Shown one piece after another: positions 3,158 to 22,193 of a stretch of DNA of 22,352 nt. The stretch is from positions 1-22,352 of the IMG/VR virus record IMGVR_UViG_3300024062_000076, one strand, 5' to 3'. The stretch comes from a virus. Both the position numbers and the translations under genes were made by a program. Each line of letters begins with the position of its first letter. The first letter of the stretch is position 1. The notes beneath the pieces are model-generated. The model was not told the origin of the DNA, ran no database searches, and saw nothing but the letters and a program-made list of their open reading frames with translations.

Positions 3158-3180
3158 TTTAATCTCCATGATTGCAGTTG

Positions 3181-5656: not shown

Positions 5657-5688
5657 TGCTTCGTTGCTCCATTGCTATTGCAGTCACC

Positions 5689-5763: not shown

Positions 5764-5795
5764 AGGAAGCCCCCGCCTCGGTCGGAAGCGGGGGC
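5760..5795 (-). terminator. Leftward-oriented intrinsic terminator in the leader of the rightward operon
   Basis: GCCCCCGC (5769-5776) and GCGGGGGC (5788-5795) form an 8-bp stem with an 11-base loop. Read leftward, the stem is followed by TTCCTTTTA, a U-rich tail typical of a Rho-independent terminator. Read rightward, the following bases are CTTGCACA, so termination in that direction is unlikely. It lies just after the predicted rightward start site, so in the rightward mRNA it would be a 5'-terminal hairpin. The -10 box of the rightward promoter lies inside the leftward U tract. Confidence 0.55.
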
Positions 5796-5825
5796 CTTGC
5801 ACATACCCAGAGAGAGGAGAACTCG

Positions 5826-5879
5826 ATGTACAATCAACACATTATCGGCACTTGGGAGGAAAACCGAAGCAATGTCTGA
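5826..5879 (+). CDS. 17-aa leader ORF overlapping the primase-helicase start
   Basis: ATG at 5826 follows GAGAGGAGAAC, the best ribosome site in this leader, and reads MYNQHIIGTWEENRSNV before TGA at 5877-5879. The stop overlaps the downstream gene's ATG (5872) in another frame, eight bases back. The arrangement suggests translational coupling or a regulatory leader peptide. No run of one amino acid suggests classical attenuation. It may equally be a fortuitous ORF; the strong ribosome site is the main support. Confidence 0.35.
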   Translation: MYNQHIIGTWEENRSNV

Positions 5880-7998
5880 CACTATAATAAACGAAGCACT
5901 GCGAATAGTGCAAGACTTTGGTTTGAAAGTATTCCCGTGCAGCGTGGACAAGAAGCCGCTCACGGCGTGGCGGGACGAGGCGACGTCTGATCCTGACAAG
6001 GTGAAAGAGCTGTTCAGCCACTCCTCTGCCGCCCTTGTCGGCGTCCCGGCTGGAGAGACGAACGACCTCTTCGTCTTGGACCTCGACCTCTACAAGGCCG
6101 ACGAGAGCGACATGGTCTTTGACTTTGCGGAGGAGCTGGACCGGCTGCCAGATGTGCGTGTCCACATGACGAAGAGCGGCGGCCTGCACTACCTGTTCCT
6201 AAATCCAACAGGCCGCAAGTGGGCGCGCAATCCAATGGGATCTTGCGAGGGCATTGGCGAGGGCTTCTACTTCATCTGGCCGACGGAAGGCTCCGGCTAC
6301 TCGGTCGAGACCGACGTGCCCATGAGCGATCTCGTTGAGCCAGACGACCACCTCCTGACGCAGAGAGAGAAGATCCGGGGCGCGACAACGACGGGCGCGA
6401 TGATGTCCTCAGAGGACGCGGACGCCTGCATGAGATCTGACGGAAAGACGGCGTCCCGGCACGACGCCCTCCTGCGCCTGACGCACGACTTCGTTCAGGC
6501 GATACCGAAGGGCCACTTGAGCGACATGCAGTGGATGACGGATACGTTCTCAGAGCTGTTCCGGGAAGACTACGGCGACGTCCTGTCGTCAGATCGGATG
6601 GAGGAGCTTCTGGAGGCCCGGCAGGACCAGCACGGAGACTGGCACGGGGAGTTGGTGCGGGCGCTGTCGTATCCGCTCAAGCTGCGGAGATCGGAGCTGG
6701 GTACAGAGCGCATGGTCGAGCTGCTCAAGGGCAGCGGGGAGGTTCCCATCATGCCCGCGCCGGTCAAGGCCGCGAGGCGGGCGTCTACGTATGAGGGCGA
6801 GATGTTCGGTGCCTTCACTGAGGAGGACGAGGACACGAAGCCGTGGCTCGTTCGGAACTTCATGAGAGTGGAGGGCAGCGGCGCGATCATTGGGCAGTCT
6901 GGCGTCGGCAAGACGACGCTGACGGCTCTGTGGGTGGCCGCCTTCATCGACGGGCAGGCGGAGGTCGCTGGCTTCCCGGAGATCGACCGGCCACTCAATG
7001 TGGCGTGGATGAATGCGGAGGAGGAGGCCGCAGACTTGAACCAGCACGTGAGGGAGGCGCAGCGGGAGCTGGGCCTGAGACCCAACGGCACGCTGATCAC
7101 CATGGGGGAGGAGATACTGGACCGGCACGAGGAGGGCATATCTCTGGTGATCAAGAAGAGAGACCCGGAGCTGAACTTCACAGACCTCGTCGTCAACATG
7201 CCGCTGGTCAACAAGATCGCGGACGAGATCCGGGCCGCCGGGATCGACCTCCTGATCGCAGATCCAATCACAGAATTTAACGACGGCAACGAGAACGACA
7301 GATCCGACGCCAAGAAGCTGAACCGAGCGTTCAAGCTGATCGCACAAAAGGCGGGCGTCGCGGTCCTGTACTGGGCGCACACGGGCAAGCCGCCGGAGGG
7401 CAAGAGGCCGGACTGGCACCGGGACGACCAGTTCTCTCAGCGCGGGTCGTCGCAGAACATTGGCGCAGTCAAGACGTCCGGCACCCTGACGCCGTGCCTG
7501 CCGCCGGGTAAGGCGGACGAGGCGCAGTCCTATTACGCAAAGTCGCGTGACCACGACCGCTTCCCGGAGGTGCCCAACATCGTAAGGATGAAGCTCCTGA
7601 AGGTGAAGAAGTGCCCGGCCAGACTGGACCTGTACTACGACATCAAGCCGGGGTCTCGCGACCGTGACATACCGGTGGCGCACTACGTGGACAGCCAGAC
7701 TGCGGTCAACATGACGGCTGCCGCAGAGGACAAGGACCGCCGTCTGAAGACGCTGCAGATAGGCCAGATCCTGATCGACCAGCTCGGCAATGGCACGCAC
7801 AACAGGACGGCGGTCAACCGGGAGATGGAGGGCATAGAGCTGCCGGGAGGTACAGTCTGGGCAAAGGACGCGAAGGCCTCAACGAAGAAGTGGAGCGCCA
7901 TCCTGTCGCTGTTCTCGGAGCCTGTGAAGATAGACAAGCTCACCATCTCAGCGACGTTCGAGGAGGGCGAGACAGCCTTCGAGGTGTACATCAGATGA
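5872..7998 (+). CDS. Primase-polymerase fused to RepA-like hexameric helicase
   Basis: A 708-aa fusion. The N-terminal archaeo-eukaryotic primase (bifunctional primase/polymerase type) has FPCSVDKKPL near the start, the metal-binding D70-L-D72, SGGLH (102-106) and a GEGFYFIWP segment. A linker of about 140 residues leads to a RecA-like ATPase of the AAA_25/RepA type with Walker A GQSGVGKT (341-348), Walker B IDLLIAD (458-464) and the WAHTGKPPEG strand that follows in RepA-like helicases. The last 180 residues may carry a DNA-binding domain. It would unwind and prime phage DNA for the family A polymerase. The frame is open back to 5656, but only ATG 5872 has a ribosome site (GGGAGGA) after the promoter. 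Iteron-like repeats begin 13 bases after its stop, as in plasmids where RepA acts near the origin. Confidence 0.93.
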   Translation: MSDTIINEALRIVQDFGLKVFPCSVDKKPLTAWRDEATSDPDKVKELFSHSSAALVGVPAGETNDLFVLDLDLYKADESDMVFDFAEELDRLPDVRVHMTKSGGLHYLFLNPTGRKWARNPMGSCEGIGEGFYFIWPTEGSGYSVETDVPMSDLVEPDDHLLTQREKIRGATTTGAMMSSEDADACMRSDGKTASRHDALLRLTHDFVQAIPKGHLSDMQWMTDTFSELFREDYGDVLSSDRMEELLEARQDQHGDWHGELVRALSYPLKLRRSELGTERMVELLKGSGEVPIMPAPVKAARRASTYEGEMFGAFTEEDEDTKPWLVRNFMRVEGSGAIIGQSGVGKTTLTALWVAAFIDGQAEVAGFPEIDRPLNVAWMNAEEEAADLNQHVREAQRELGLRPNGTLITMGEEILDRHEEGISLVIKKRDPELNFTDLVVNMPLVNKIADEIRAAGIDLLIADPITEFNDGNENDRSDAKKLNRAFKLIAQKAGVAVLYWAHTGKPPEGKRPDWHRDDQFSQRGSSQNIGAVKTSGTLTPCLPPGKADEAQSYYAKSRDHDRFPEVPNIVRMKLLKVKKCPARLDLYYDIKPGSRDRDIPVAHYVDSQTAVNMTAAAEDKDRRLKTLQIGQILIDQLGNGTHNRTAVNREMEGIELPGGTVWAKDAKASTKKWSAILSLFSEPVKIDKLTISATFEEGETAFEVYIR

Positions 7999-8010
7999 CG
8001 GTGCAGAAGT

Positions 8011-8114
8011 GGTGCAACTTTGGTGCAACTTTGGGGTGGTTGCAACTTTCTGCACCAGTTAGTTTGTTTGTTTTCAATAGGTTAGTCGGTGCAACTTTAT
8101 TTAGGTGCAACTTT
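8011..8114 (+). repeat. Iteron-like direct repeats, unit GGTGCAACTTT
   Basis: Perfect 11-base copies at 8011-8021, 8022-8032, 8088-8098 and 8104-8114, plus TTGCAACTTT at 8040-8049. All are in one orientation. The first two are in direct tandem; the last two are 16 bases apart. Partial copies (GGTGCAGAAG at 8000-8009, GTTGCAGTAC after the last unit) flank the array. The arrangement resembles initiator-binding iterons. Confidence 0.75.
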
Positions 8115-8179
8115 GTTGCAGTACCAGTAAGTCGTTGGAAACAAACAGTAAATCGGGTTGCTGCAAAATGCAGGCAAGT

Positions 8180-8199
8180 AGGGGTAGTAAACTACCCCT
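8180..8199. repeat. Short perfect hairpin in the putative origin
   Basis: AGGGGTAG (8180-8187) and CTACCCCT (8192-8199) are exact inverted repeats around TAAA. No T run follows on either strand, so it is not an obvious terminator. It may be a protein site or a structured element of the origin region. Confidence 0.5.
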
Positions 8200-8252
8200 T
8201 CCACTACGTATCTGCACTGCGCGAAAGGGGGGAGTTACTGCCTGCCCCTGCT

Positions 8253-8280
8253 GGGGTGGGATCGGGGTGGGGAGGGAGGG
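8253..8280 (+). other. G-quadruplex-type G tract
   Basis: Six G runs of three or four bases, separated by 1-3 bases (T, ATC, T, A, A), fit the standard quadruplex pattern several times over. The tract continues into a 10-base AG repeat. It lies on the coding strand between the iterons and the resolvase gene. Confidence 0.6.
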
Positions 8281-8290
8281 AGAGAGAGAG

Positions 8291-8334
8291 CGGCCCTCGG
8301 TCTGGAGAGCGGTGACGCGCTTGACCGAGGGCCG
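8291..8334. repeat. 12-bp perfect hairpin
   Basis: CGGCCCTCGGTC (8291-8302) and GACCGAGGGCCG (8323-8334) are exact inverted repeats around a 20-base loop containing GGTGACGCG. It is the longest perfect stem noticed in the window together with the 8957-8996 repeat. Lack of a T run argues against a simple terminator. It may be a binding site, an origin hairpin, or an RNA structure in the resolvase leader. Confidence 0.6.
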
Positions 8335-8351
8335 GTGACCCAATAGGGTCT

Positions 8352-8381
8352 ATGGCGACGAAACCATGGAGACAGAGATGA
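8352..8381 (+). CDS. 9-aa mini-ORF, first in a chain before the resolvase
   Basis: ATG at 8352 reads MATKPWRQR and stops at TGA 8379-8381, which overlaps the next mini-ORF's ATG as ATGA. Its ribosome site is poor (GGTGA 13 bases upstream). Support comes only from the overlap geometry, so confidence is low. Confidence 0.2.
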   Translation: MATKPWRQR

Positions 8382-8410
8382 CACACCCAACCAGCGACCT
8401 CAACAGATGA
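8378..8410 (+). CDS. 10-aa mini-ORF coupled to the resolvase start
   Basis: ATG at 8378 is preceded by GGAG with six bases between, and reads MTHPTSDLNR. Its TGA (8408-8410) overlaps the resolvase ATG (8407) as ATGA. The resolvase start itself has no ribosome site, so ribosomes loaded here would reinitiate there. This is an inference from layout; the peptide probably has no function of its own. Confidence 0.4.
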   Translation: MTHPTSDLNR

Positions 8411-8874
8411 TTGTGTTCGGCATTGATCCCGGAGCTACCGGAGGCCTCGCCGTCTTGAGGGACGGCAGGCTGATTGACGCAATGCGGATGCCGACCGTCG
8501 TCGTGCGAGGAAAGCCAGCGGTTGACGGCTCCGTCCTGCATGATTGGATGTACGGCCACCTAGACGGCGGCGCTCTGTTTGTCTTGGAGCATGTCCACGC
8601 CATGCCGAGGCAGGGCGTGAGCAGCAGCTTCCAGTTCGGTAGGATGTTCGGTGCCGTCGAGGCTCTGGCTATCGCGACGGGCCGGAGGGTGGAGCATGTG
8701 ACGCCCTCGGTCTGGAAGAAGGCATTCCACCTGACCACTGACAAGCAGGCCAGCATCGACGCCGCACGCCTGCGCTTCGGTGATGAGGTGAGCAAGTACG
8801 TCAAGATCAAGAAAGACGAGGGCGTGGCGGAGGCCTGCCTGCTCGCTGCCTACGGCCATGATCACCTGCTGTGA
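8407..8874 (+). CDS. ruvC: RuvC-like Holliday junction resolvase
   Basis: A 155-aa RNase H-fold endonuclease of the RuvC type, expected to cut branched DNA during recombination or before packaging. Motifs: FGIDPGATGG with D7, FVLEHVHAMP with E61, and KDEGVAEACLLAAYG near the C-terminus, where D137/E138 and E142 supply the remaining acidic ligands. It is slightly shorter than E. coli RuvC, as usual for phage versions. The start must be ATG 8407, since no other start codon lies between an upstream in-frame stop and D7, yet no Shine-Dalgarno sequence precedes it; translation is probably coupled to the mini-ORF at 8378. It sits between the putative origin and the terminase genes. Confidence 0.92.
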   Translation: MIVFGIDPGATGGLAVLRDGRLIDAMRMPTVVVRGKPAVDGSVLHDWMYGHLDGGALFVLEHVHAMPRQGVSSSFQFGRMFGAVEALAIATGRRVEHVTPSVWKKAFHLTTDKQASIDAARLRFGDEVSKYVKIKKDEGVAEACLLAAYGHDHLL

Positions 8875-9044
8875 CTGCACCGAGGGGGCTGTATCAGGCG
8901 TACAGGCGCAGCGGCCCGGCAGCGCAGCCACACGCGCGCGAGCTATTACACGGTGCATTTAACATAATACCGCCGATAATAGTCATTATGTTAAATACGG
9001 TTATTGAGTGTTATCAAAGGCTTAACTCTGTTAGGCCCAGATAA
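8871..9044 (+). CDS. Possible 57-aa single-membrane-span protein
   Basis: A GTG at 8871 overlaps the resolvase stop as GTGA and opens a 57-codon frame. The product starts (M)TAPRGLYQAYRRSG, continues to a hydrophobic stretch FNIIPPIIVIMLNTVIEC (about residues 30-47) and ends basic (YQRLNSVRPR). One membrane span flanked by positive charges could suit a small lysis or membrane protein. Against it: the frame runs across two strong inverted repeats (8957-8996 and 9008-9047), which suggests regulatory DNA, and there is no clear ribosome site apart from coupling. I rate it a candidate only. Confidence 0.28.
   Translation: MTAPRGLYQAYRRSGPAAQPHARELLHGAFNIIPPIIVIMLNTVIECYQRLNSVRPR
8957..8996. repeat. 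12-bp AT-rich inverted repeat
   Basis: ATTTAACATAAT (8957-8968) and ATTATGTTAAAT (8985-8996) are perfect inverted repeats around a 16-base centre. AT content is far above that of its surroundings. It could be a protein-binding site for the terminase small subunit or a late regulator. No T run fits a terminator. Confidence 0.6.
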
Positions 9045-9047
9045 CAC
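9008..9047. repeat. Two-tier hairpin upstream of terS
   Basis: Outer arms GTGTTATC (9008-9015) and GATAACAC (9040-9047) enclose inner arms GGCTTAAC (9019-9026) and GTTAGGCC (9030-9037), which pair except for one G-U, with loop TCT and an AAA/CA internal loop. The 40-base element would fold as RNA or act as a symmetric DNA site. Its role is unknown. Confidence 0.55.
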
Positions 9048-9254
9048 GACGATCACACAACCCAGACGGGAGATATAGGACAGGTTGGGGCAAAAATTGA
9101 GGCGAGAGGCCCCCCCGGTGTGGGGCGCGGCGGGGGGTGGCTGCATATGTACCCCCACACGCACCAATTTTTCATTGCGTTTTTGGATCTGTTTGCCATG
9201 GGGGGGCGGGTTCCGTAGTGTGGGCTTGCCAGAAAATTTTTTGAGGAGAGTTTT
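9045..9254. other. Structured non-coding leader before terS, candidate packaging or late-control region
   Basis: About 210 bases without a gene. AAAAATTG (9092-9099) pairs with CAATTTTT (9165-9172), and nested inside GTGTGGGG (9118-9125) pairs with CCCCACAC (9153-9160). Long C and G runs (9110-9116, 9132-9137 and seven G near 9200) add alternative folds. A 23-codon ORF from 9147 (MYPHTHQFFIAFLDLFAMGG) has weak support. Phage packaging sites commonly lie in or near terS, so this is a reasonable place for one. No confident sigma70 promoter was found. Confidence 0.4.
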
Positions 9255-9671
9255 ATGCCGGGACGTCCGCTGAAACGCCGAGTCGAGAGCGCGGTCAAGA
9301 CGATGGAGCTGGTCGATTACATCGCCAAGGGCGGCACCGTGAAGGGTCTGGCGGAGGAGCTGGGCTGCTCGCGGTCGTTCCTGTCGCGGATGCTGAACTC
9401 TCAGTTTGCCGCAGAGATGGACGAGGGGCGGCGGCTGCACGCGGACGCGCTAGCGGAGGAGTGCCTGACGATTGTGGACGGCCTGCCCGAGCATGAGGAT
9501 CTGACGTCGGCGCAGGTCCAGCGCGCGAAGGAGAGGGTCTCGGTGCGCAAGTGGATGGCGTCGATGAATAACCCCGACAGGTTCGCCCCGAAGAAGGACA
9601 ACGTGACGATCAACATCAATGAGCTGCACCTCGGCGCGATGAAGAAAATGAAGACGATTGAGCATGAGTGA
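9255..9671 (+). CDS. terS: Terminase small subunit
   Basis: A 138-aa protein directly before TerL. Residues about 20-55 (LVDYIAKGGTVKGLAEELG, CSRSFLSRML) form a helix-turn-helix expected to recognise the packaging site; the rest is helical and suited to oligomerisation, ending in a charged tail with KMKTIEHE. It would select phage DNA and stimulate TerL. The ribosome site GAGGAGAG lies just ahead of ATG 9255. The stop overlaps the TerL start by eight bases. Assignment rests on HTH, size and position rather than on a highly conserved motif. Confidence 0.85.
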   Translation: MPGRPLKRRVESAVKTMELVDYIAKGGTVKGLAEELGCSRSFLSRMLNSQFAAEMDEGRRLHADALAEECLTIVDGLPEHEDLTSAQVQRAKERVSVRKWMASMNNPDRFAPKKDNVTININELHLGAMKKMKTIEHE

Positions 9672-11052
9672 CAACCCGTTCGAGGAATTTGTCGATCTGT
9701 ATGCGGACGACCCCGTCGGCTTCGTCAGGGATGTGCTGGGGGCCAGCCCCCTGCCGTATCAGGCAGAGTTTCTGGAGGCGGTGAAGGTCGAGAGGAAGAT
9801 CTCCGTCCGGTCAGGCCACGGGACGGGAAAGTCCACGGCGGCCAGTTGGGCGATGCTGTGGTTTGTCCTCCTGCGCTTCCCGAACAAAGTGGTGGTGACT
9901 GCGCCGACCAGCGGGCAGTTGTTTGACGCCCTGTTTGCGGAACTGAAGCGGTGGATCTCGGAGCTTCCGGACCCACTGAGGGTGCTTCTGGAGGTCAAGT
10001 CTGATCGCGTGGAGCTTGTGGCCGCCCCGTCTGAGGCGTTTATTTCGGCGAGGACGTCGAGAGCTGAGACGCCGGAGGCTCTGGCCGGCGTACACTCCGA
10101 CAACGTCATGCTGGTAGTGGACGAGGCGTCGGGCGTGCCTGAGCAGGTGTTCGAGGCCGCCGCAGGATCGATGAGCGGGCACAGCGCGATCACGATGCTG
10201 TTTTCCAACCCGACGAGATCCAGCGGCACGTTCTACGAGACCCAGACGCGCCTCAAGGGGAGCTGGCGCACGTTCCACTGGAGCTGCGTAGACAGCCCTC
10301 TGGTGTCAGACGAGTTCGTCGAGGAGATGAAGCTCCGCTACGGCGAGGACAGCAACGCATTCAGGATCAGGGTTCTCGGCGAGTTCCCGCTGGCAGACGA
10401 TGACACGATCATACCATTTCACTTGGTGGACGCGGCGTCGAACCGTGACATCGAAGCCGACGGGCCGCAGGTGTGGGGCCTCGACGTCGCGAGGTTCGGA
10501 AGCGATAAGACGGCACTGGCGAAGCGTCAGGGGGCGGTGATCACCGAAGTGTCACGCTGGCAGGGACTGGACTTGATGCAGACGGTGGGTCGGGTGAAGG
10601 CGGAATACGACGGCCTCCCGACGCACCTGCGCCCGCAGGAGATCATGGTGGACGTCATTGGCATGGGTTCCGGCGTGGTGGACCGACTGCGGGAGCTGGG
10701 CCTCCCGGTACGCGGCGTGAATGTGTCAGAGGCCCCGTCGATGGGCGGGACATACCTGAACCTGCGCGCGGAGCTGTGGTTCAAGTTGAGGGGCTGGCTG
10801 GAGCAGCGGGGGTCCAAATTACCAAAAGACGAGCAACTTATTGCCGAATTGACCTCAATCCGCTATAGCTTCATGAGCAGCGGAAAAATTAAGGCCGAAG
10901 GTAAAGACGAAATGCGCAAGCGTGGACTGCCCTCACCAGACTTGGCTGACGCCGTGTGTTTGACCCTGTCGGCTGACGCAGCCACGGCACTGGGCGGGAA
11001 GGTCGTGTCATGGGGCAAGCCCCTACGCCGCGCTCTGAAAGGGATAGCCTGA
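9664..11052 (+). CDS. terL: Terminase large subunit
   Basis: A 462-aa packaging motor and nuclease. ATPase: Walker A SGHGTGKS (50-57), Walker B LVVDE (150-154) with catalytic E154, and the coupling segment FSNPT (180-184). RNase H-type nuclease: D274 in VWGLDVARFG, D330 in IMVDVIGMGSG, and D426/D429 in SPDLADAV. It translocates DNA into the prohead and cuts concatemers. ATG 9664 is preferred; a TTG two codons upstream is possible. It overlaps terS and hands over to the next gene through TGATG. A patch at about 10813-10917 has AT-richer codons (AAA, ATT, TTA) than the flanking GC-rich codons. Confidence 0.97.
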   Translation: MSDNPFEEFVDLYADDPVGFVRDVLGASPLPYQAEFLEAVKVERKISVRSGHGTGKSTAASWAMLWFVLLRFPNKVVVTAPTSGQLFDALFAELKRWISELPDPLRVLLEVKSDRVELVAAPSEAFISARTSRAETPEALAGVHSDNVMLVVDEASGVPEQVFEAAAGSMSGHSAITMLFSNPTRSSGTFYETQTRLKGSWRTFHWSCVDSPLVSDEFVEEMKLRYGEDSNAFRIRVLGEFPLADDDTIIPFHLVDAASNRDIEADGPQVWGLDVARFGSDKTALAKRQGAVITEVSRWQGLDLMQTVGRVKAEYDGLPTHLRPQEIMVDVIGMGSGVVDRLRELGLPVRGVNVSEAPSMGGTYLNLRAELWFKLRGWLEQRGSKLPKDEQLIAELTSIRYSFMSSGKIKAEGKDEMRKRGLPSPDLADAVCLTLSADAATALGGKVVSWGKPLRRALKGIA

Positions 11053-11648
11053 TGGGATTACTCGACTTCTTCACCGGCGGCAGCAGCGCCCCGACTAAAA
11101 CCACCAAAGCATCCAGCCCGGCAGCGCCCCCCGAGAGAGCGCCGTACCGTGGCTTCAGCGGCGTTATCCGAGACGCAACAGACGGCGGCGGGTTTGGTCA
11201 ATCGATCTTTGGCCCCCCTCAAAAAATAGTGCGCCGGGAGACGCCCCAAGAGGATTACAGTTTCTTCCGAGATATTTTTGACGGCGGCGGTATGGGACAC
11301 TCCGCCAACGCGTTCGGCGGGCCTTTTGGTGGACTGCTGAACGCATTTGGGATACGCCCTATGGGATACACCGAGCCGCAGAAGCCTACGGCAGATATGC
11401 TCGCAGCCAAGAATGCCATGATGCGCCGCATCGGCACAGCTCCTCCAGCAGCAAACGCAGTCGCGATGCCGGGTCGCTTTGATCGACCGGAGAACCCCTC
11501 GCGGATGCCCCCTGCTCCTTTTGCGAACGCTGCCCCATTTAATCAGCGCCGGGTGGACTACCTGCAGTCTGGAGATCCGGACTTGAGGGCAGCTTACATG
11601 GCCTATCTCGACATGTTCGACCGCAGTCGTCGCACTGGGCCACAGTAA
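11052..11648 (+). CDS. Pro/Gly-rich putative virion protein, paralogue of next gene
   Basis: A 198-aa protein starting MGLLDFFTGGSSAPTK. ATG 11052 overlaps the TerL stop (TGATG). It is low in predicted order: Ala/Pro/Gly-rich throughout, with FGGPFGGLLNAFGIRPMGYTEP in the middle (cited here in parts: GGLLNAFG, PMGYTEP). The C-terminus AAYMAYLDMFDRSRRTGPQ resembles the end of the 11672 product. This is the position where a portal is normally encoded, but length and composition exclude a portal. Late-operon context suggests a virion or assembly protein. No known family is recognised. Confidence 0.85.
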   Translation: MGLLDFFTGGSSAPTKTTKASSPAAPPERAPYRGFSGVIRDATDGGGFGQSIFGPPQKIVRRETPQEDYSFFRDIFDGGGMGHSANAFGGPFGGLLNAFGIRPMGYTEPQKPTADMLAAKNAMMRRIGTAPPAANAVAMPGRFDRPENPSRMPPAPFANAAPFNQRRVDYLQSGDPDLRAAYMAYLDMFDRSRRTGPQ

Positions 11649-11671
11649 GAGCTAATTTAAGGGGCTTCACG

Positions 11672-12391
11672 ATGTACAACAGAAGCAAATCAGGGAAGCC
11701 TAACCGACGCCCCAAGGGCGGTCTTCTAGCGCTTATGGACCCGCAGGCCGCCTCAACCTCGACTGGCTACGCCGATATTGACGCGATGATCGCGCGATCT
11801 GAAGCCCGCAGCCGGGAGATAGACGAGCTTCTCGCGTCAGTAAGGGCAAACGCGCCTGACCGCCTGCGAAACACTCCCGGATTTCGCATGCTGGCAGGCG
11901 GGGGTGCGCCCGCCCAGCCGGGTATTTTGCCGGACGCGTCAATGGAGCCTATGGGCTATGAGCCGCCCCCAGTCACGGCGGACTACTTCGCCACCCCTGC
12001 GCCTACTGAATATCAAGAGTTCGCCGCCCCCGCCCCTACCGAATACCGAGGCTTCGCGCCGATTGCCGAGTTGCGGGCAGGCTACGATGATTTCATCCGC
12101 GACCAAGGTTTGGTCAACCCAGATTACCCTGAACTGGCTACGGACGCTGATCTCAACGCCAACTATGAGCAGAGCCTCCGCGACCGGGGCATGCCCGTAC
12201 CTCTTCCGCAAACTGAAGGCCCCATGATGACTTCCGAGTACGTGGATCTTCTGGATCGCTTGGGCGCGCTGGTCCCCCAAGATGATCCATTCGACGCCCG
12301 CCTTGGAAACTACATGACGCAAGACGGCATGCAGGCGTACATTGATTACTTGAGATCGATCATGCGTTCGGGCCGTGCAGGGGTCCAGTAA
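11672..12391 (+). CDS. Pro-rich putative virion protein with PAPTEY repeats
   Basis: A 239-aa protein beginning MYNRSKSGKPNRRPKGG, with AAGGGG seven bases before the ATG. A helical part (about 33-60) precedes a proline-rich segment with two near-identical repeats, PAPTEYQEFA and PAPTEYRGFA (109-130). Shared features with the preceding gene are PMGY followed by EP and TAD, and a C-terminus QAYIDYLRSIMRSGRAGVQ close to AAYMAYLDMFDRSRRTGPQ. I infer that the two genes are diverged duplicates. Function unknown; disordered virion or scaffold-type protein is likely. Its TAA overlaps the next ATG (TAATG). Confidence 0.82.
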   Translation: MYNRSKSGKPNRRPKGGLLALMDPQAASTSTGYADIDAMIARSEARSREIDELLASVRANAPDRLRNTPGFRMLAGGGAPAQPGILPDASMEPMGYEPPPVTADYFATPAPTEYQEFAAPAPTEYRGFAPIAELRAGYDDFIRDQGLVNPDYPELATDADLNANYEQSLRDRGMPVPLPQTEGPMMTSEYVDLLDRLGALVPQDDPFDARLGNYMTQDGMQAYIDYLRSIMRSGRAGVQ

Positions 12392-13872
12392 TGGGGATAC
12401 GAGACGATATTGTCAGAAACGCTACGAGGGGGCTACTGCCCCGCGTGACAGGCGCGCCTTCAGGATTGCCTCCTCTGCCCCCCGCTCCTCCCGGTATTAA
12501 TGCCACGGGTCGAGTTCCGGGTGCGGACCCCAACTTCGGGCCTACGGGGCGTATTTCGACACGCCAGCCGTCAGGACCAAACGCGGACGCTGACCCCCTT
12601 ACCGGGCGTCTTACTATTGGTCAGGCTGATATAGATCGCGGCGGTACTCTCCAGAAAAACATGGAGTTTATTGCTAACCAGCCGGGATATGAGTGGCTAC
12701 GAGACTTGCCTGCGGATGAGGCTGCCACGCTGTATAACGACTTCCAGCGTGAAAACATTAGCTTCGTGATGGACCGCCTGCCGTCTGAATTTCAAGATCG
12801 GGCGAAGCTGTGGTACACTGGGGCAAACAGGTTTTCTGACGAGGTAGCGCAGAGGTATGGATTACCTAGATCTTCGATGTCTGGCGTCATCGCTGCCCTG
12901 TCACCTCAGATGGATTGGTTCAAAAATGCTTCACTGGCAGAGCGTGTCGCGGACGCCGCGATAGCGAATAGAAACCACCCTTGGACTGCTGAGATGACGG
13001 CTGTGGCGGAGCGGTATCCGTCTTTCGTAAATGGCCGCAGGGGTCGTAACGCAGAGATATGGTCTCAGATCCAAGGAAAGTCATACGCCGATCTTGAGAC
13101 GATTGAGCAGAAGGCCATGTGGGTCCGAGCGTTTGATGAGGCTATGAACCCTAAGACGTACCGGTCCCTGACGCCTGAAGGCGACCTCGGTAATTTTGTC
13201 TTAAAGCAAGACGGTCAACCAGCAGCCATTTCGTGGGGCGGTTTCGGGGATATTGAAAAAGCGATTACGTCTTTGGAAAGCGGAGGCGACTTCGGTGTTA
13301 TATCTAACGCGATGGGTGGGCAGCATAAAGTCCGTAACTTCTTTAACAATATTGAAGTCCCCTTCAGTGACATGGGCGACATCACAGTAGATACGCACGC
13401 CATCGCGGTAGGAAACATGCGCCCTCTCGCGGGGAGCGATCCCCTGACCATACAAGGTCTGGGGGGTATGTTTAAAAGCACACCTACGGGTTCGATGGGT
13501 AATTACGGCCAGCAGGCGGATAATTATCGTGCTGTGGCTGCTGACCGAGGGCTTCTTCCGAGGGAGACGCAATCGATTACGTGGGAGGGCATACGCGGCC
13601 TGTTTACCAACAAATCCGCGCAGACAAAGCGCAATGTTGAAGGTATCTGGCAGGCGCACTCTAGGGGTGAACTGACACAGCAGCAGGCTCTGGATATGAT
13701 CGAAGAGCAGGCAGGCGGTTTCAGTATGCCAAACTGGCTTTCAGAGCCTGACCCCAGACGGAGCATCGCCACAGGAGGTCGAACGATGTTTGGCCTCGGC
13801 GTAGGCGGCGGTTTGTTGGCACCCCAAGAGCAAGAAAGATCCCCCAGAAGAGGTCTGTTAGATGGCTTCTGA
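12391..13872 (+). CDS. HhH-GPD/DUF7178-like protein with disordered ends
   Basis: A 493-aa protein. Residues 1-80 are Pro/Gly-rich and probably disordered. The core (about 95-410) carries LWYTGANRFSDEVAQRYG (140-157), GVIAALSPQMDWFKNAS (165-181), KVRNFFNNIEVP (313-324), ITVDTHAIAV (331-340) and QSITWEGIRGLF (394-405). This series resembles phage DUF7178-type proteins, which have a helix-hairpin-helix DNA glycosylase-like layout, with the Asp of VDTHA in the place of a catalytic Asp. The similarity is from memory of the pattern and needs a profile search. C-terminus: GGGLLAPQEQERSPRRGLLDGF region. It is encoded among virion genes, not with replication genes, so it may be packaged and ejected. 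It overlaps the following gene by 11 bases. Confidence 0.85.
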   Translation: MGIRDDIVRNATRGLLPRVTGAPSGLPPLPPAPPGINATGRVPGADPNFGPTGRISTRQPSGPNADADPLTGRLTIGQADIDRGGTLQKNMEFIANQPGYEWLRDLPADEAATLYNDFQRENISFVMDRLPSEFQDRAKLWYTGANRFSDEVAQRYGLPRSSMSGVIAALSPQMDWFKNASLAERVADAAIANRNHPWTAEMTAVAERYPSFVNGRRGRNAEIWSQIQGKSYADLETIEQKAMWVRAFDEAMNPKTYRSLTPEGDLGNFVLKQDGQPAAISWGGFGDIEKAITSLESGGDFGVISNAMGGQHKVRNFFNNIEVPFSDMGDITVDTHAIAVGNMRPLAGSDPLTIQGLGGMFKSTPTGSMGNYGQQADNYRAVAADRGLLPRETQSITWEGIRGLFTNKSAQTKRNVEGIWQAHSRGELTQQQALDMIEEQAGGFSMPNWLSEPDPRRSIATGGRTMFGLGVGGGLLAPQEQERSPRRGLLDGF

Positions 13873-15205
13873 CTTGCACCCTCGCATCCGAGCTAGGATG
13901 GAGGGCAGGTACAACGCCCTGCACCGCGCGTACACAGATACCGGCACTCTGTCTCCAGAAGCGTGGTCGGAGATGTCGTCTATCTACGAGCGGCTTTTGC
14001 CTACTATGGAGGCGGAGGCGGCGCAGTATGAGGCTGAGACCCAGCCTGCCATACGTGCGTACACTCCGACCACTCAGGAGGCGGTGGCGGGCTATATCGG
14101 GGACCGTCTGTCTGGCGTCCTGCCGAACTCGTCTTACCGCGTAGGTCACCGCGTCTCTAACTTACTGGATCTCCTCCCCGGCACGGGTACGCTCATGGCT
14201 GGAGATCAGGCACGGAGGGACTACAACGAAGGCAGCTACGGATCTGCCGCCCTGAACGCGGGTTTCGCGGCGCTAGACGCTCTGCCCTTTGTCGGGGCTG
14301 CTGCCAGAGCCATACCGTCTGATGCGATATATGCAGGACGATCACTGTTAGAGGGAGACCCTAGAGGGCTGCTTGAGGCAGTTTCGCCCACCCGTCCTCG
14401 TCAGAGCCTAAGCGCCATGAGGGCAGATAACCCCGGCGGTCGGCGGCTTGAGGGTAAAACCCCAGCCCAAGAGATTGCGCGTCTTCTGCGTGAGGGCCGC
14501 GCGTCAGAGGTGTCGGATGACCTGTACGCAGCCGCAGACCCGCAGGAACTGCACAGGCTCTATGAGACCGGAGCCACGGGCGCAGATATGCCTATGGATA
14601 CGACGAGCCGGATGGCAAGGGCGGAAGAAGCGGGTTTTGATGCGGATACGCCGCTTTATCACGGGGGCGACGGGTTCGGGCTTGATGTGAATTTTAAGTA
14701 TCCTGCACCCGTCTACGTAGCGGATGAGACTTTTGGAGCGAGCGAATATGCGTTAGACCGGGGCGGCGATGACGCACAAGTTGCCCCCTTGGTCGCGCGT
14801 ATGGGTAAAATCGCAGACGGCGACGAAGTTCTGCGCGTGTGGGAAGACGTATCAGGAAGGTCGCGCGATGGGCTGGATTATCAGTTTGGCTGGGTGCCGT
14901 TAAATGACACTTATTCGGACCACACTTCGCAAGTTCACCAAGGTTTATTAGATCGGGGTTATGACACCGCTTACTTCGATGACGATTTTACGCCAGACGG
15001 CGAGGTTATTGAAAGTTACGCGCTGTTAAACCCAGTATCCAACATCCGCAGTCGCTTCGCCCGCTTTGACCCCCGCCTGTCCCACCTTCGCAACCTGTCC
15101 TCAGGCGTGGCGGGCGCTGGCGCGGTGGGCCTTGGTCTTCTATCCCAACAACCAAGCCAATCAGAAGTTGAGCAATATCTGGCCGAAAGGGGCCTGCTAC
15201 AATGA
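13862..15205 (+). CDS. ADP-ribosyltransferase-like putative ejected virion protein
   Basis: A 447-aa protein. Residues 1-70 are helical. An Ala/Gly-rich hydrophobic stretch at about 125-165 (AALNAGFAALDALPFVGAAA) could touch membrane. The C-terminal half has the arrangement of phage polyvalent-type ADP-ribosyltransferases: RMARAEEAGFDADTPLYHGG with H267, VYVADETFGASEYA with Y296, LLDRGYDTAYFDD, and YALLNPVSNIRSRFARFDP (386-404). The usual Glu directly before the Y-x-x-x-x-P strand is Ser here, with E384 one residue earlier, so activity is uncertain. A hydrophobic AGAGAVGLGLLSQQ lies near the end. ATG 13862 follows AGAGG. Late-operon context suggests it enters the host with DNA and modifies a target; the target is unknown. 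Confidence 0.85.
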   Translation: MASDLHPRIRARMEGRYNALHRAYTDTGTLSPEAWSEMSSIYERLLPTMEAEAAQYEAETQPAIRAYTPTTQEAVAGYIGDRLSGVLPNSSYRVGHRVSNLLDLLPGTGTLMAGDQARRDYNEGSYGSAALNAGFAALDALPFVGAAARAIPSDAIYAGRSLLEGDPRGLLEAVSPTRPRQSLSAMRADNPGGRRLEGKTPAQEIARLLREGRASEVSDDLYAAADPQELHRLYETGATGADMPMDTTSRMARAEEAGFDADTPLYHGGDGFGLDVNFKYPAPVYVADETFGASEYALDRGGDDAQVAPLVARMGKIADGDEVLRVWEDVSGRSRDGLDYQFGWVPLNDTYSDHTSQVHQGLLDRGYDTAYFDDDFTPDGEVIESYALLNPVSNIRSRFARFDPRLSHLRNLSSGVAGAGAVGLGLLSQQPSQSEVEQYLAERGLLQ

Positions 15206-15816
15206 GCCTGACGACGTACACTGAACTGAAAGCCGCCGTTGCCGACTGGCTCCTGCGGGACGATCTGACGTCGGTAATCCCGAGCTTCATATCGCTCGCG
15301 GAGGCGGACATGAACCGGACCTTGCGTCACTGGCGCATGGAGGCTTCTGTGTTTGCCTCCCTGTCCGACCAGTTCTCACCCCTTCCGGCTGACTTCATTG
15401 AAGTGGCGCGGGTCACGGGGCCGAACTCAGAGCGCATCGAATTAGCTAGCCGGGGAGACATGCAGGACATGCGGAGCCGTTCCAGTGACACTTCTGGAAC
15501 TCCGACCAGCTACGCCCTGACCAGCGGAAAGCTGGAGCTTTACCCCACGCCGTCTGCCAGTATGCAGATCACGTTGGAGTATGTAGCCCGGCCCCCGGCA
15601 CTGTCGGACAGCAACGCCACGAACTGGGTGATGACCTACCACCCAGACATCTACCTTTACGGCACCCTGATGCAGTCCGCTCCATACCTGAAGGACGACG
15701 AGCGCGTATCGATCTGGGGCGGAATGTACCAGAAGGCCCTGCAGGAAGCGAACACAGCGAGCCAGCAGGCGCGTTTTGCCGGGACTAACCCGCGCGTAAA
15801 AATTAGGAGCTACTGA
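15202..15816 (+). CDS. Head-tail adaptor, SU10-like
   Basis: A 204-aa protein matching the pattern of podophage SU10-type adaptor proteins: MSLTTYTELKAAVADWLLRD, PSFISLAEADMNRTLR (26-41), an LPADFIEVARV strand, ITLEYVARPPAL, and a C-terminal helical region with YHPDIYLYGTLMQSAPYL. Adaptors of this type bind below the portal and connect it to the tail. Its presence suggests a short-tailed (podovirus-like) particle. The ATG overlaps the previous stop as ATGA. In many phages it follows portal and capsid genes; here neither is seen upstream. Confidence 0.85.
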   Translation: MSLTTYTELKAAVADWLLRDDLTSVIPSFISLAEADMNRTLRHWRMEASVFASLSDQFSPLPADFIEVARVTGPNSERIELASRGDMQDMRSRSSDTSGTPTSYALTSGKLELYPTPSASMQITLEYVARPPALSDSNATNWVMTYHPDIYLYGTLMQSAPYLKDDERVSIWGGMYQKALQEANTASQQARFAGTNPRVKIRSY

Positions 15817-17255: not shown

Positions 17256-18734
17256 ATGCTTGTCGAACTAAAACCGCCCCCCGGAGTGTTCTCTACCGGC
17301 ACAGACCTAGAGAGCGAGGGACGGTGGCACGACGCGAGCCTCGTGCGCTGGAGAGACGGCAGCCTGCGCCCGGTCGGCGGGTGGGTCAGCCGGTTTGGGT
17401 CTGCGTCTTACGCCGCGCCCCCCAGAGGCATGCTTGCGTGGGAGGCTCTGGACGGAACCCGGTGGCTGGTGGCAGGTACGTACAACAAGCTGTACGCCAC
17501 GACAGCCTCTGGGACGACGTCTGATATAACGCCCTCCGGCTTTTCTTCTGGAACGGAAGACGCGACTGTCAACACCGGCTACGGCGGCGGCCTTTACGGA
17601 ACTGGCTTCTACGGACAGGCCCGGCAAGACGTCGGGAACTACGGAGAGGCCGCTACGTGGTCGCTCGACACGTGGGGCCAGTATCTTGTCGCCTGCTCGC
17701 AGTCGGACGGGAAGATCTACGAGTGGCAACTGAATGCGTCTACTGCCGCGCAGCAGATCGCAAACTCCCCCTCTAACTGCCTCGGCCTCGTCGTTACAGA
17801 AGACCGGTTCATCTTTGCGCTAGGCGCGAACGGAGACCCTCGAAAGATCGCGTGGTGCGACTTTGAGGACAACACCCTGTGGGCTGCCGCTTCCACTAAT
17901 CAGGCGGGAGACACTACGCTCCAGACCAGCGGCCAGATCATGACGGGCATCCGCACGCAGGGCCAGACGCTTATCTTGACAGACCAAGACGCTCACCGGT
18001 CTACGTATATCGGCGCTCCCTTCATTCATCAGTTCGAGCGCGTCGGCTCCGCATGCGGGACTGTATCCAGAAAGGCCGTAGCAGATACCCCTGCCGGAGT
18101 ATTCTGGATGGGCCAGAGAGGGTTCTTCAATTACGCGGGTGCGACTGTTCAAGAGGTTCCGTGTGCAGTCAGCGACCGCGTCTTTGAAGACGTAAACACG
18201 GCCCAGATCAGTAAGTCGTGGGCCGTGTCAAACGGCCAGTTCGGGGAGGTGTGGTTCTTCTACCCAAGCTCCTCCAGCACAGAGATCGACCGGTACGTCG
18301 TCTACGACTACAAGGAAAACCACTGGACCATAGGTTCACTAGACCGCACTTCCGGCGTAGACCGGGGCGTGTTCTCCAAGCCCCTGTGGGCGTCTTCCGC
18401 CGGAGAGGTCTACGATCATGAGACGGGCTACAACCACGGGTCTCAAGAAGTGTTTGCAGAGAGTGGACCCTTCAAGATAGGGGCCGGTGACAAGCTCGCT
18501 GTCGTCACAGATCTAATTCCAGACGAGCTGAACCTCGGCGACGTGACAACGTCTTTTAAGACCCGTCTGTACCCTAACTCCACGGAGACGACGCACGGCC
18601 CCTACAGTCACACGGAGCCTACCAGTGTACGCTTTCAAGGCAGGCAGATACGAATGCGCGTCTCGGGTGCTGTAAACGCGGCGTGGCGGGTGGGTAAGTA
18701 CCGCTTTGAAGTCAAGCCCGGTAGCCGTCGATGA
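17256..18734 (+). CDS. Tail hub / packaged-DNA stabilisation-like protein
   Basis: A 492-aa protein with GGGAG seven bases before ATG 17256. It opens with KPPPGVFSTGTDLESEGRW and LVRWRDGSLRPVGGW, and then has repeated beta-blade-like segments ending in aromatic/Gly motifs (WLVAGTYNKLYATT, TWGQYLVACSQSDGKIYEW, VVTEDRFIFALG, DQDAHRSTYIG, GVFWMGQRGFFNY, VVYDYKENHWTIG). This looks like a beta-propeller and resembles podophage hub/stabilisation proteins (P22 gp10 type, similar in length) in layout. Identity is inferred from pattern and size. The product would close the tail channel and hold packaged DNA. Confidence 0.8.
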   Translation: MLVELKPPPGVFSTGTDLESEGRWHDASLVRWRDGSLRPVGGWVSRFGSASYAAPPRGMLAWEALDGTRWLVAGTYNKLYATTASGTTSDITPSGFSSGTEDATVNTGYGGGLYGTGFYGQARQDVGNYGEAATWSLDTWGQYLVACSQSDGKIYEWQLNASTAAQQIANSPSNCLGLVVTEDRFIFALGANGDPRKIAWCDFEDNTLWAAASTNQAGDTTLQTSGQIMTGIRTQGQTLILTDQDAHRSTYIGAPFIHQFERVGSACGTVSRKAVADTPAGVFWMGQRGFFNYAGATVQEVPCAVSDRVFEDVNTAQISKSWAVSNGQFGEVWFFYPSSSSTEIDRYVVYDYKENHWTIGSLDRTSGVDRGVFSKPLWASSAGEVYDHETGYNHGSQEVFAESGPFKIGAGDKLAVVTDLIPDELNLGDVTTSFKTRLYPNSTETTHGPYSHTEPTSVRFQGRQIRMRVSGAVNAAWRVGKYRFEVKPGSRR

Positions 18735-20534: not shown

Positions 20535-22193
20535 ATGAGAGTTCCCGGCCTTATAAGAACACCCGCGCCTCTCCCGGCGAGTTCTTACGCTACGCCGGTT
20601 GCGTACTTCGAGGATCACTACGGGCCTAAGAGGCCCTACGCCCCGAGGGACGAATGGTTTTCCGTCATCAACCAAGCTGTGGACGACACTTTTGGGGCGG
20701 ACCACACGGTGCGGATGCAGTCCGGTTCGAATATCGATTACAACGGATCTGGAGAGGCCCTGCCACAGCACGGATCTCGGCGACACGGAACTGGGCTGGC
20801 TGGCGATTTCTCAATCATGAGGCCCGACGGCAGCATCGTTCCCATAGACAGCCCGGAGAGCCTTCGATTTATGCACAGGGCATCGGAGCTGGGCATCACG
20901 GGAATGGGCGCGGGGACCGAGTATATGGGTCCGACGTCTTACCATATGGACTTAGTTACACCGGACCCCGCTCGCGGCGAAGGACACGTATGGGGTTCGG
21001 TAGCGAGGGCAAACGCGCCCTCTATCGTCCCTCTAATGACTGGACAAGACAGCCCGAGTAGGATCGCGGGCGACGCTATGGATGCACTGGGGATCACTAT
21101 GAACGCCAACCGACCGCCGCAGCCAGCCCAGCCGCAGGGGCTGCTTGGCTTTTTAGGAATGCAACGACAAGACCAGTCAGCGGGAGGCGAGACGGCGATG
21201 CCGTTTTACCAGCGCCCCACCTTCCAAGACTTCGCTGGCAAAGCTGCGCAGGCGTTCAACACGCTGCGCCTGCGCCCCGACGATCAGTTAGGCGCTGTGA
21301 TTAAGGACCGGCGGGAAGGCCGTCAGGAAGAGGCCAGAGCAAGCCGCACAACCGACTGGCTGTCTCAGCAGCCCGGATCGGAGGCGTACGTGGAGGCCAT
21401 TAGAGGCGGCGCAGATCCCGGCGCGGTCCTGATGGAGTATCAGGCCGCTCGAACCAAAGCCGCAGCCTCGCCAGATCAGACGTCGGCCATACAGAACTAC
21501 GAATACATGCTCGCGCAGGGCGAAGACCCCGCAGCCGCCAGAGAACGCGCCTTCGGAGGCGGCGTAAATATTGACATGGGTGGAGGCACAGACGTAGCGA
21601 GCGAAAGCGCCAAATACCTCGCACAGCAGGCCGTAGATTACAGCACTCAGGGGCAGGCCGCTGCCACACTGGCGCAAGATTTGGACGCGCTTTCAGCGCT
21701 TGCGGATGTGCAGTCTACCGGCCCTTTAGCCGGGCGATTTGCTGAGATGTTCCCTGATCTGAACAACGCGGACGCAGTTCGGAATGCTATTGTAAAACGC
21801 GTTGGGCCATCTCTACGCGCAGAAGGCAGCGGCTCTACGTCGGACATCGAATACCAAGGTATGCTGGACTCTTTGGGAAGCCTTAAATACACCCCAGAAG
21901 CCAACCGCGCGTTGATATCTATCTTCATTCGACGCAGTGAGTTTATGCAGCAGCGCGGCGCTCTGGCTCGCCAAGCGATGGCAGGTCAGATAACAACCAA
22001 AGAGTATCTCGACAGCCTCACTCAACTGGAGAATAATTTAGGTACTATGCCTCCAGAACTTATGGCTGTGATAAACCGAAACCTAATAGTACCTGCATCT
22101 AATGAGGGTAATCTCGGCTCAACTGAAGCCAGAGACCAGCGCGCCGATACACTAAGCTCTGAAATTTTTGGAGACACGACTGATGGCCGATAA
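20535..22193 (+). CDS. Large virion protein with M15 peptidase-like domain
   Basis: A 552-aa protein beginning right after the previous stop (TAAATG). Residues about 35-150 carry QHGSRRHGTGLAGDFSIM with H84 and D91 in the H-x6-D zinc pattern of M15/VanY-type peptidases, then GAGTEYMGPTSYHMDLV with H137 as the likely third ligand, implying peptidoglycan cleavage at entry. The remainder (about 200-552) is helical and Ala/Gln-rich, with PQGLLGFLGMQRQ near 200 and coiled-coil-like segments to the end, as in ejected internal virion proteins. No signal peptide is seen. Start has only a weak ribosome site. It overlaps the next gene by 11 bases. Confidence 0.85.
   Translation: MRVPGLIRTPAPLPASSYATPVAYFEDHYGPKRPYAPRDEWFSVINQAVDDTFGADHTVRMQSGSNIDYNGSGEALPQHGSRRHGTGLAGDFSIMRPDGSIVPIDSPESLRFMHRASELGITGMGAGTEYMGPTSYHMDLVTPDPARGEGHVWGSVARANAPSIVPLMTGQDSPSRIAGDAMDALGITMNANRPPQPAQPQGLLGFLGMQRQDQSAGGETAMPFYQRPTFQDFAGKAAQAFNTLRLRPDDQLGAVIKDRREGRQEEARASRTTDWLSQQPGSEAYVEAIRGGADPGAVLMEYQAARTKAAASPDQTSAIQNYEYMLAQGEDPAAARERAFGGGVNIDMGGGTDVASESAKYLAQQAVDYSTQGQAAATLAQDLDALSALADVQSTGPLAGRFAEMFPDLNNADAVRNAIVKRVGPSLRAEGSGSTSDIEYQGMLDSLGSLKYTPEANRALISIFIRRSEFMQQRGALARQAMAGQITTKEYLDSLTQLENNLGTMPPELMAVINRNLIVPASNEGNLGSTEARDQRADTLSSEIFGDTTDGR

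What the first reader, a model, noticed from the sequence alone, without database searches (positions are those of the whole stretch)
11052..15205. Accessory block where portal and capsid genes would be expected
TerL is followed by two Pro/Gly-rich proteins, an HhH-GPD/DUF7178-like protein and an ADP-ribosyltransferase-like protein, and only then the head-tail adaptor. No portal, scaffold or major capsid is recognisable in the window. Four tightly coupled genes, two with enzyme-like folds, suggest a cassette of virion-carried proteins that act in the host right after DNA entry. The portal and capsid genes are probably beyond the right edge.
Basis: partly seen in the sequence, partly recalled or inferred. 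Interest (0 to 1): 0.62.

Follow-up and report, generated by a model that had tools for sequence, protein, structure and literature searches.

The report
Swappable effector cassette in marine podovirus
Between its DNA-packaging gene and its first tail gene, this ocean bacterial virus carries a small cassette whose ends stay the same while the enzyme in the middle is swapped between sister viruses, which looks like a delivery slot for proteins that sabotage the host as infection begins.

Summary
TerL (9658-11052) is followed by four coupled genes A-D, then the SU10-type adaptor; no portal, scaffold or capsid gene is in the window. The head genes have moved. In six near relatives and in the cultured podovirus OANV2 (MW805364), portal-scaffold-MCP lie 14-17 kb downstream of TerL or fit that map, beyond the right edge. 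In 55 of 55 complete TerL-adaptor intervals of the clade only variable cargo lies between. A and B coexist with an intact portal in L222, so they are not disguised head genes. C carries DUF7178 (Pfam 1e-20); D ends in an ART-PolyVal-type domain, shown through homologues. The locus is a swap site. A sister phage (96.8% identical upstream) keeps the ends of C and the first 200 residues of D but has unrelated cores. A 111-aa N-terminal stem carries ART, PBECR5, DUF7178 or GNAT cores in relatives. These are polyvalent-type domains, so virion-packaged, ejected host-takeover or anti-defence effectors are the best reading (about 0.7). Packaging itself is not shown. HhH-GPD for C is not confirmed.

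The parts
9255..9671 (+). small terminase subunit (TerS) candidate
   Evidence: 33-51% identity to ORFs immediately upstream of TerL in relatives L033, L089, L012; the functional name is inferred from position.
9658..11052 (+). large terminase (TerL), left border of the variable locus
   Evidence: Pfam Terminase_6N 7e-6, phrog_2 2.7e-45; 55-62% to phiM5 and MW202879/711/496 TerL.
11052..11648 (+). gene A: Pro/Gly-rich protein, 198 aa from the coupled start (212 aa from ATG at 11010); family with a 'DGGGxG' motif
   Evidence: Homologues directly after TerL in G001, OANV2 gp4 and many clade members, and in L222 together with an intact portal.
11672..12391 (+). gene B: Pro/Gly-rich protein, 239 aa, 'GGLLALMD' near the N-terminus
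   Evidence: 71-94% homologues in L088, L091, L222, L223, L224; in L222 followed by SLT, portal, scaffold and MCP.
12391..13872 (+). gene C: effector candidate with a DUF7178 core (493 aa)
   Evidence: PF23802 1e-20; AlphaFold2 model pLDDT 83.7, pTM 0.82; the same fold occurs in phage polyproteins that include ART-PolyVal-like ones.
12391..12543 (+). C N-terminal stem (residues 1-51), disordered, shared with the sister phage
   Evidence: pLDDT below 50 for residues 1-51; near-identical in L088 for about 35 residues although the core is unrelated; DNA similarity stops at 12495.
12550..13761 (+). C exchangeable core (residues 54-457, DUF7178); invariant K313 and D334
   Evidence: 79 IMG/VR homologues; 37 invariant columns in 46 sequences; replaced by an unrelated core in L088.
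13807..13869 (+). C disordered C-terminal tail (residues 473-493), ends RRGLLDGF
   Evidence: pLDDT below 50; last 16 residues 94% identical in L088.
13862..15205 (+). gene D: effector candidate, N-terminal stem plus ART-type cartridge (447 aa)
13862..14458 (+). D stem (residues 1 to about 199), Gly/Ala-rich hydrophobic segments
   Evidence: 87-88% identical in L088 D, which has a different C-terminal half; DNA similarity to L088 ends at 14458; residues 76-191 resemble the stem of L188 (blastp 1.5e-7 in a small set).
14459..15202 (+). D cartridge: ADP-ribosyltransferase-like domain (YHG ... NIRSRFARFDPRLSHLRNL)
   Evidence: Same cartridge on other stems in L089-L095 and OANV2 gp6; L090 scores PF18760 3.8e-10; DNA similarity to L091 starts at 14459.
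15202..15816 (+). SU10-type head-tail adaptor (tubeA), right border of the locus
   Evidence: PF24175 7.6e-39; 100% identical in L088.
17256..18734 (+). P22 gp10-like tail or DNA-stabilisation protein (tubeB)
   Evidence: phrog_3287 1.4e-84; 50% to the MW202879 phage stabilisation protein.
20535..22193 (+). internal virion protein candidate; in relatives portal-scaffold-MCP follow a few genes further on
   Evidence: 35% to the G001 protein two genes before the portal and 44% to OANV2 gp19.

Best explanation
The window is a fragment of a LUZ24/phiM5-type marine podovirus, probably of Rhodobacteraceae or related Alphaproteobacteria, in which portal-scaffold-capsid have moved to the far end of the late cluster. 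The slot between TerL and the adaptor is an exchange site for effector genes. Each effector has a conserved N-terminal stem, often a conserved C-terminal tail, and a core that recombination replaces. In this phage the cores are DUF7178 (C) and an ADP-ribosyltransferase-like domain (D). Most likely C and D are made late, loaded into the particle through the stem and tail, ejected with the DNA, and used at once to disarm defence or redirect host machinery; changing defences would select for the swapping. Shown: gene order, relocation, stem/core swapping, domain identities (D through homologues). Inferred: packaging, ejection, target, and that stem and tail are the loading signal. A and B are long-standing neighbours of TerL of unknown role, perhaps minor head or carrier proteins.
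For: Relocated head genes: clade records G001, G072-G075 and the complete cultured OANV2. Late-cluster position with coupled starts. Swapping: window versus L224/L088; L186 versus L198 at 95-97% flanks with unrelated cores. One 111-aa stem always near the N-terminus in 95 complete ORFs, carrying ART-PolyVal (11 of 66), PBECR5 (9), DUF7178 (5) or GNAT (3) cores. The C core lies inside 2.7-5.1 kaa proteins, one with ART-PolyVal and methyltransferase domains, and is structurally matched in BFVD to ART-PolyVal-like polyproteins. Iyer et al. 2017 (PMC5512222) predict injection for such proteins; T4 Alt and Ip1-3 are experimental precedents (PMC9026906, PMC12373910). Stem and tail of C are predicted disordered. 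'GLL' occurs in the last 45 residues of 22 of 45 cargo proteins, against 2.1 expected by shuffling.
Against: No virion proteomics for any phage with this locus; the OANV2 paper reports none. C and D each have a single recognisable core, unlike typical polyvalent proteins. D itself falls below all family thresholds and its model is poor (pLDDT 46), so catalytic competence is unknown. The stem has no recognised packaging homology, and the D stem matches the clade stem only weakly (7.4 bits). The GLL enrichment is partly shared ancestry and also occurs mid-protein (8 of 51 versus 0.8 expected).
Confidence: 0.7

Rival explanations
1. C and D are late-expressed proteins that act in the producing cell (late host takeover, superinfection exclusion, timing of lysis) and are not packaged; the locus is an ordinary moron or accessory hotspot.
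For: No packaging data. Accessory hotspots with swapped cargo are common in phages. A and B are not enzyme-like.
Against: Position inside the TerL-adaptor virion cluster in all complete intervals; conserved N-terminal stem with exchanged cores, which an unexported late protein does not need; cores shared with polyvalent proteins that are encoded among virion genes.
Confidence: 0.2
2. The stems are structural ejection or channel-forming proteins (P22 gp7/gp16/gp20-like) and the cores are incidental or decayed passengers.
For: Stems have hydrophobic Gly/Ala-rich segments; SLT transglycosylase genes occur in the same slot in L144, L159 and L222; phiM5 IVP28, detected in particles, ends in GLL.
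Against: Separate internal virion proteins are encoded downstream (20535-22193; OANV2 gp19-20); some clade members have no large cargo at all (L146, gap 545 nt); core residues are highly conserved (37 invariant columns in C), so they are not decaying.
Confidence: 0.1
3. One of the four genes is a divergent portal, scaffold or capsid protein.
For: They occupy the slot where the portal lies in phiM5 and relatives.
Against: No head-protein HMM match; C has a DUF7178 fold and D an ART-type domain; A and B coexist with a real portal in L222; real portal, scaffold and MCP exist downstream in the relatives.
Confidence: 0.01
4. MuF-type polymorphic toxins for competition between bacteria or phages.
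For: Conserved N-terminus with variable C-terminal nuclease or ART cores resembles MuF polymorphic toxins (PMC5576092).
Against: No MuF domain found by Pfam in C, D or other cargo; no room for an immunity gene after C or D (overlaps of 11 and 4 nt); OANV2 infection ends in cell lysis, whereas MuF toxins are linked to temperate phages.
Confidence: 0.04

Closest known systems
Polyvalent proteins of phages (Iyer et al. 2017, PMC5512222)
   Same: Same domain pool (ART-PolyVal, PBECR, methyltransferase, ParB-like, peptidase); encoded among virion genes; the DUF7178 core of C and an ART occur in one 3.1-kaa protein of LS06-2018-MD07.
   Different: Here the domains sit in separate 300-850 aa proteins with a common N-terminal stem and are exchanged as cartridges at one fixed locus.
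T4 internal proteins Ip1-3 and Alt (PMC9026906, PMC12373910)
   Same: Works-like analogy: variable bodies behind a conserved N-terminal element; Alt is an ART; the Ip proteins are ejected anti-restriction factors.
   Different: No sequence relationship was found; the stem is about 110-200 aa or a disordered 50-aa segment rather than a 10-residue capsid-targeting sequence; packaging is not shown.
MuF polymorphic toxins (PMC5576092)
   Same: Conserved N-terminus with polymorphic C-terminal effector domains, in a phage head gene cluster.
   Different: No MuF domain and no immunity gene.
LUZ24-like / phiM5 podoviruses (MF074189; lineage in PMC10386132)
   Same: TerL, adaptor (tubeA), gp10-like tubeB; in relatives also the same portal, scaffold and capsid families.
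   Different: Portal-scaffold-MCP are not after TerL but 14-17 kb downstream; the usual place holds the effector cassette.
Octadecabacter Antarctic DB virus 2 (OANV2, MW805364)
   Same: Same relocated order: TerL-A-small ORF-gp6 (stem plus ART)-adaptor ... portal-scaffold-MCP; cultured podovirus.
   Different: Its TerL has no blastp match at E 1e-3 to the window TerL; it has a single large cargo gene with a different stem and an extra domain before the ART; no DUF7178 protein in the slot.

Membership tests
PF23802 DUF7178 (protein C) | Profile match above the curated cut-off | tested here: met
   74.9 bits versus cut-off 27, E 1e-20.
HhH-GPD DNA glycosylase superfamily (protein C) | Profile or fold match to HhH-GPD enzymes | tested here: not met
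   hhalign to 29 Nth/MutY-type proteins: probability 0.3%; to a single Nth: 1.5%. Foldseek to PDB not significant, although the highest-probability hits are 8-oxoG glycosylases (1xqp prob 0.28 E 0.68; 8bvx prob 0.18).
HhH-GPD DNA glycosylase superfamily (protein C) | Catalytic Lys and Asp, the Asp in a (V/I)D(T/V)H-type motif | tested here: inconclusive
   K313 and D334 (GGQHKVRN ... ITVDTHAI) are invariant in 46 sequences and spaced much as in Nth/OGG1, but the assignment rests on my reading of the motif.
PF18760 ART-PolyVal (protein D) | Profile match above the curated cut-off | tested here: inconclusive
   D itself: no hit at E up to 1. Homologues over the same region: L090 41.1 bits, cut-off 31.2, E 3.8e-10; L155 42.2 bits, 1.8e-10.
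Polyvalent proteins | Several domains of disparate activity in one polypeptide | tested here: not met
   C and D each show one recognisable core. L088 D combines ParB-like (by eye) and methyltransferase regions, and homologues of the C core lie in multidomain proteins.
Polyvalent proteins | Domains from the polyvalent pool, encoded among virion genes | tested here: met
   Slot between TerL and adaptor; ART-PolyVal, PBECR5 and GNAT cores at the same locus in relatives.
Polyvalent proteins | Packaged and injected with the DNA | not testable with these tools
   Needs virion proteomics; none found in the literature searched.
MuF polymorphic toxins | N-terminal MuF domain | tested here: not met
   No MuF hit by Pfam in C, D, relatives or 66 stem proteins.
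MuF polymorphic toxins | Small immunity ORF downstream | tested here: not met
   C/D overlap 11 nt and D/adaptor overlap 4 nt.
T4-type internal proteins | Short N-terminal capsid-targeting sequence cleaved by a prohead protease | not tested
   No CTS pattern or protease search was made; only the analogous architecture (conserved N-terminus, variable body) was observed.
LUZ24/phiM5-like podovirus | Homologous TerL and adaptor/tubeB genes | tested here: met
   TerL 54.7% to phiM5; SU10 adaptor and gp10-like protein.
LUZ24/phiM5-like podovirus | P22-type order TerL-portal-scaffold-MCP-tubeA | tested here: not met
   0 of 55 clade intervals have a head gene after TerL; the order holds in phiM5, most of L112-L137 and L222.

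The most novel reading that the evidence does not exclude
The N-terminal stem is a previously undescribed virion-loading and ejection domain that defines a polymorphic effector family in marine podoviruses: one fixed slot, one delivery module, exchangeable ART, RNase (PBECR5), DUF7178, acetyltransferase or methyltransferase cargo, independent of MuF and of T4-type targeting sequences.
Probability: 0.4. Interest if true: 0.8.

Novelty: new variant of a known kind. Interest (0 to 1): 0.62.

Why it matters
It turns a general prediction (polyvalent effectors are injected) into a compact, testable system: a fixed locus in a well-represented marine phage clade where near-identical phages differ in little but effector cores, plus a cultured representative (OANV2). 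Comparing alleles could reveal which host defences drive the exchange, and the stem may show how podoviruses load non-structural cargo. It also documents relocation of the normally stable portal-scaffold-capsid block, so a missing portal after TerL in this clade is not evidence of a defective phage or a satellite.

Tried and rejected
(1) Divergent portal or capsid: HMMs of 17 portals, 19 scaffolds and 24 capsids found nothing. (2) C as an Nth/MutY-type HhH glycosylase: hhalign negative, no PDB sequence match, Foldseek non-significant. (3) A confident model of D: pLDDT 46, not used for a fold search. (4) PADLOC on C and D: nothing; weak hits only for L088 D and L194. (5) My first labelling of many clade cargo proteins as DUF7178 was wrong: their blast hits were to the N-terminal stem of the G001 protein, not its core; corrected, with core typing redone by Pfam. 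(7) Prophage search in genome contigs: one locus, in a Rhodobacteraceae metagenome bin, so the host assignment is weak. (8) Literature on DUF7178: none. (9) Assembly chimera: rejected because L009 is 99.98% identical over 5.2 kb and independent pairs show the same swap pattern.
Full report
What is in the window. The record is a 22,352-base IMG/VR virus contig. Its right part encodes TerS, TerL, four genes A-D, an SU10-type adaptor, tail and host-contact genes, a P22 gp10-like protein, and an internal virion protein candidate. A starts in a TGATG overlap with the TerL stop, B/C share TAATG, C/D overlap by 11 nt and D/adaptor by 4 nt. A and B are Pro/Gly-rich. C matches DUF7178 at 1e-20. D has no direct family hit, but its C-terminal half is about 35-45% identical to proteins that match ART-PolyVal.

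No head genes, and where they are. Portal, scaffold and capsid HMMs made from relatives find nothing credible in the window. In phiM5 and three Manatee Spring phages, whose TerL is 55-62% identical, TerL is followed by portal, scaffold and MCP, and the same order holds in most adaptor relatives. In the window's own clade it does not. G001 (37.9 kb, TerL 83%) has its gp10-like gene split over both contig ends, so it is a near-complete permuted genome. Its order is TerL, A, C, adaptor, tail, internal proteins, portal, scaffold, MCP, with the portal about 16.8 kb after TerL. Four further contigs (G072-G075) put the portal 14-16 kb downstream of TerL on the same strand; a fifth (G080) is consistent with a permuted form of the same map. 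Of 81 loci with TerL at 75% or more, 55 cover the whole TerL-adaptor interval (545-4,311 nt, median 1,809) and none has a head gene in it. A cultured, complete podovirus, OANV2, has the same layout: TerL gp3, gp4 (A family), gp5, gp6 (stem plus ART), tubular tail gp7, then portal gp22 and MCP gp26, 15.3 kb from TerL to portal. The head genes of the window phage should therefore start near 25-28 kb, off the right edge. A and B are not hidden head genes: L222 (TerL 58%) has TerL-A-B-SLT-portal-scaffold-MCP.

The locus is a cartridge exchange site. L224 is 96.8% identical to the window over 2416-11939. L088, from the same metagenome and probably the same phage, continues from B: the adaptor is 100% identical in protein, but the middle of C (12495-13797) and the end of D (14458-15133) have no counterpart. 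The C gene of L088 keeps the window's N-terminal stem and last 16 residues around another core. Its D gene keeps the first 200 residues at 88% but carries a different C-terminal half, ParB-like by my reading and methyltransferase-like (62% to CRP-738 gp40). Conversely, L091 shares D only from nucleotide 14459 onward, exactly where L088 similarity stops, and the D cartridge sits on other stems in L089-L095 and OANV2. Independent pairs repeat this: L186 and L198 are 95-97% identical from TerL through the stem and again in the adaptor, with unrelated cores between (PBECR5 versus an unnamed core); L194 and L197 do the same at 93-94%.

A shared stem. An HMM built from the L186 N-terminus finds a 111-aa domain near the N-terminus of 95 complete ORFs (66 distinct). 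Pfam finds ART-PolyVal in 11, PBECR5 in 9, DUF7178 in 5 and GNAT in 3 of the 66; core clustering gives at least five unlinked groups. The D stem is a weak match (7.4 bits; blastp 1.5e-7 to L188 in a small set), and the C stem of the window is a different, disordered sequence. So there are several stem types, not one. The string GLL is over-represented at both ends of cargo proteins (last 45 residues: 22 of 45 versus 2.1 expected; first 45: 16 of 38 versus 1.9), and less so in the middle (8 of 51 versus 0.8). One particle-detected internal protein of phiM5 ends in GLL. I treat this as a lead only, since tails are partly related by descent.

What C and D probably do. The C core recurs in 79 viral contigs, as a 400-700 aa protein, in several cases beside TerL, portal or capsid genes, or as a module in 2.7-5.1 kaa proteins. 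In LS06-2018-MD07 the 3.1-kaa protein also holds ART-PolyVal and methyltransferase domains. AlphaFold2 gives a confident helical core (residues about 80-460) with disordered stem and tail. BFVD matches include ART-PolyVal-like and acetyltransferase polyproteins; PDB gives no significant match, the least unlikely being 8-oxoguanine glycosylases. The invariant K313 and D334 in a GxxHK...ITVDTH context look like a bifunctional HhH-GPD glycosylase, but profile comparison fails, so an enzyme on DNA is a plausible guess and not a result. D is most likely an ADP-ribosyltransferase; activity is unknown.

Mechanism. Established: late cluster, fixed slot, conserved ends, exchanged cores, and a domain pool typical of polyvalent proteins, which Iyer et al. 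(PMC5512222) argue are packaged and injected. Precedent: T4 internal proteins are packaged through a short N-terminal element and ejected; Ip1-3 block type IV restriction enzymes and Alt is a packaged ART (PMC9026906, PMC12373910). Inferred here: stem and tail load C and D into the head or portal region, they leave with the DNA, and changing host defences select for swapping. The main rival is a late, non-packaged role. MuF-type competition toxins fit less well: no MuF domain, no immunity gene.

Comparison and novelty. The phage is a LUZ24/phiM5-type podovirus by its genes but not by gene order. The cargo shares domains with polyvalent proteins but fails their multidomain definition; it works like T4 internal proteins without being one. 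I rate it a new variant of a known kind.

Limits. Most relatives are metagenomic contigs from one collection; ORFs were called mechanically; host assignment rests on a Rhodobacteraceae bin and cultured Rhodobacteraceae phages with distant homologues; there is no proteomic or biochemical evidence.

Noticed in passing
window 20535-22193; G001 and OANV2 gp19 homologues: The internal virion protein candidate matches its relatives only from about residue 195-200 on; its N-terminal part, which reads like an M15-type peptidase (by eye), differs from theirs (OANV2 gp19 is annotated cell wall hydrolase), so this protein may also have a swapped hydrolase domain.
   Followed up: partly
L010 6581-7872, L012 10982-12273: Close relatives carry two tandem SU10-adaptor-like genes, reminiscent of the dual tubeA arrangement described for Sulfitobacter phage PhiGT1 (PMC10386132).
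   Followed up: no
L008 (OP947163, Rhodobacteraceae phage LS06-2018-MD07) 1-9155: A 3,103-aa protein annotated 'methyltransferase' combines ART-PolyVal, methyltransferase and DUF7178 domains, plus a peptidase-like motif seen by eye.
   Followed up: partly
L334 (MW805364, OANV2) 625-2085: The OANV2 TerL gives no blastp match (E 1e-3) to the window TerL although the rest of the late cluster is homologous and in the same order, so TerL has been replaced within this layout.
   Followed up: no
L119 3-1211: A C homologue (38%) lies immediately upstream of TerL in a phage with the usual TerL-portal-scaffold-MCP order.
   Followed up: no
L129: A more distant relative shows adaptor, gp10-like, portal and MCP in that order, suggesting a second case of relocated head genes.
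   Followed up: no
window 521-5656 and L099 (G008) 2307-7615: The leftward block (PolA, SSB, Cas4-like exonuclease, helicase) is shared with G008 at 42-55% but is absent or divergent in G001, so the replication module is exchanged independently of the late genes.
   Followed up: no
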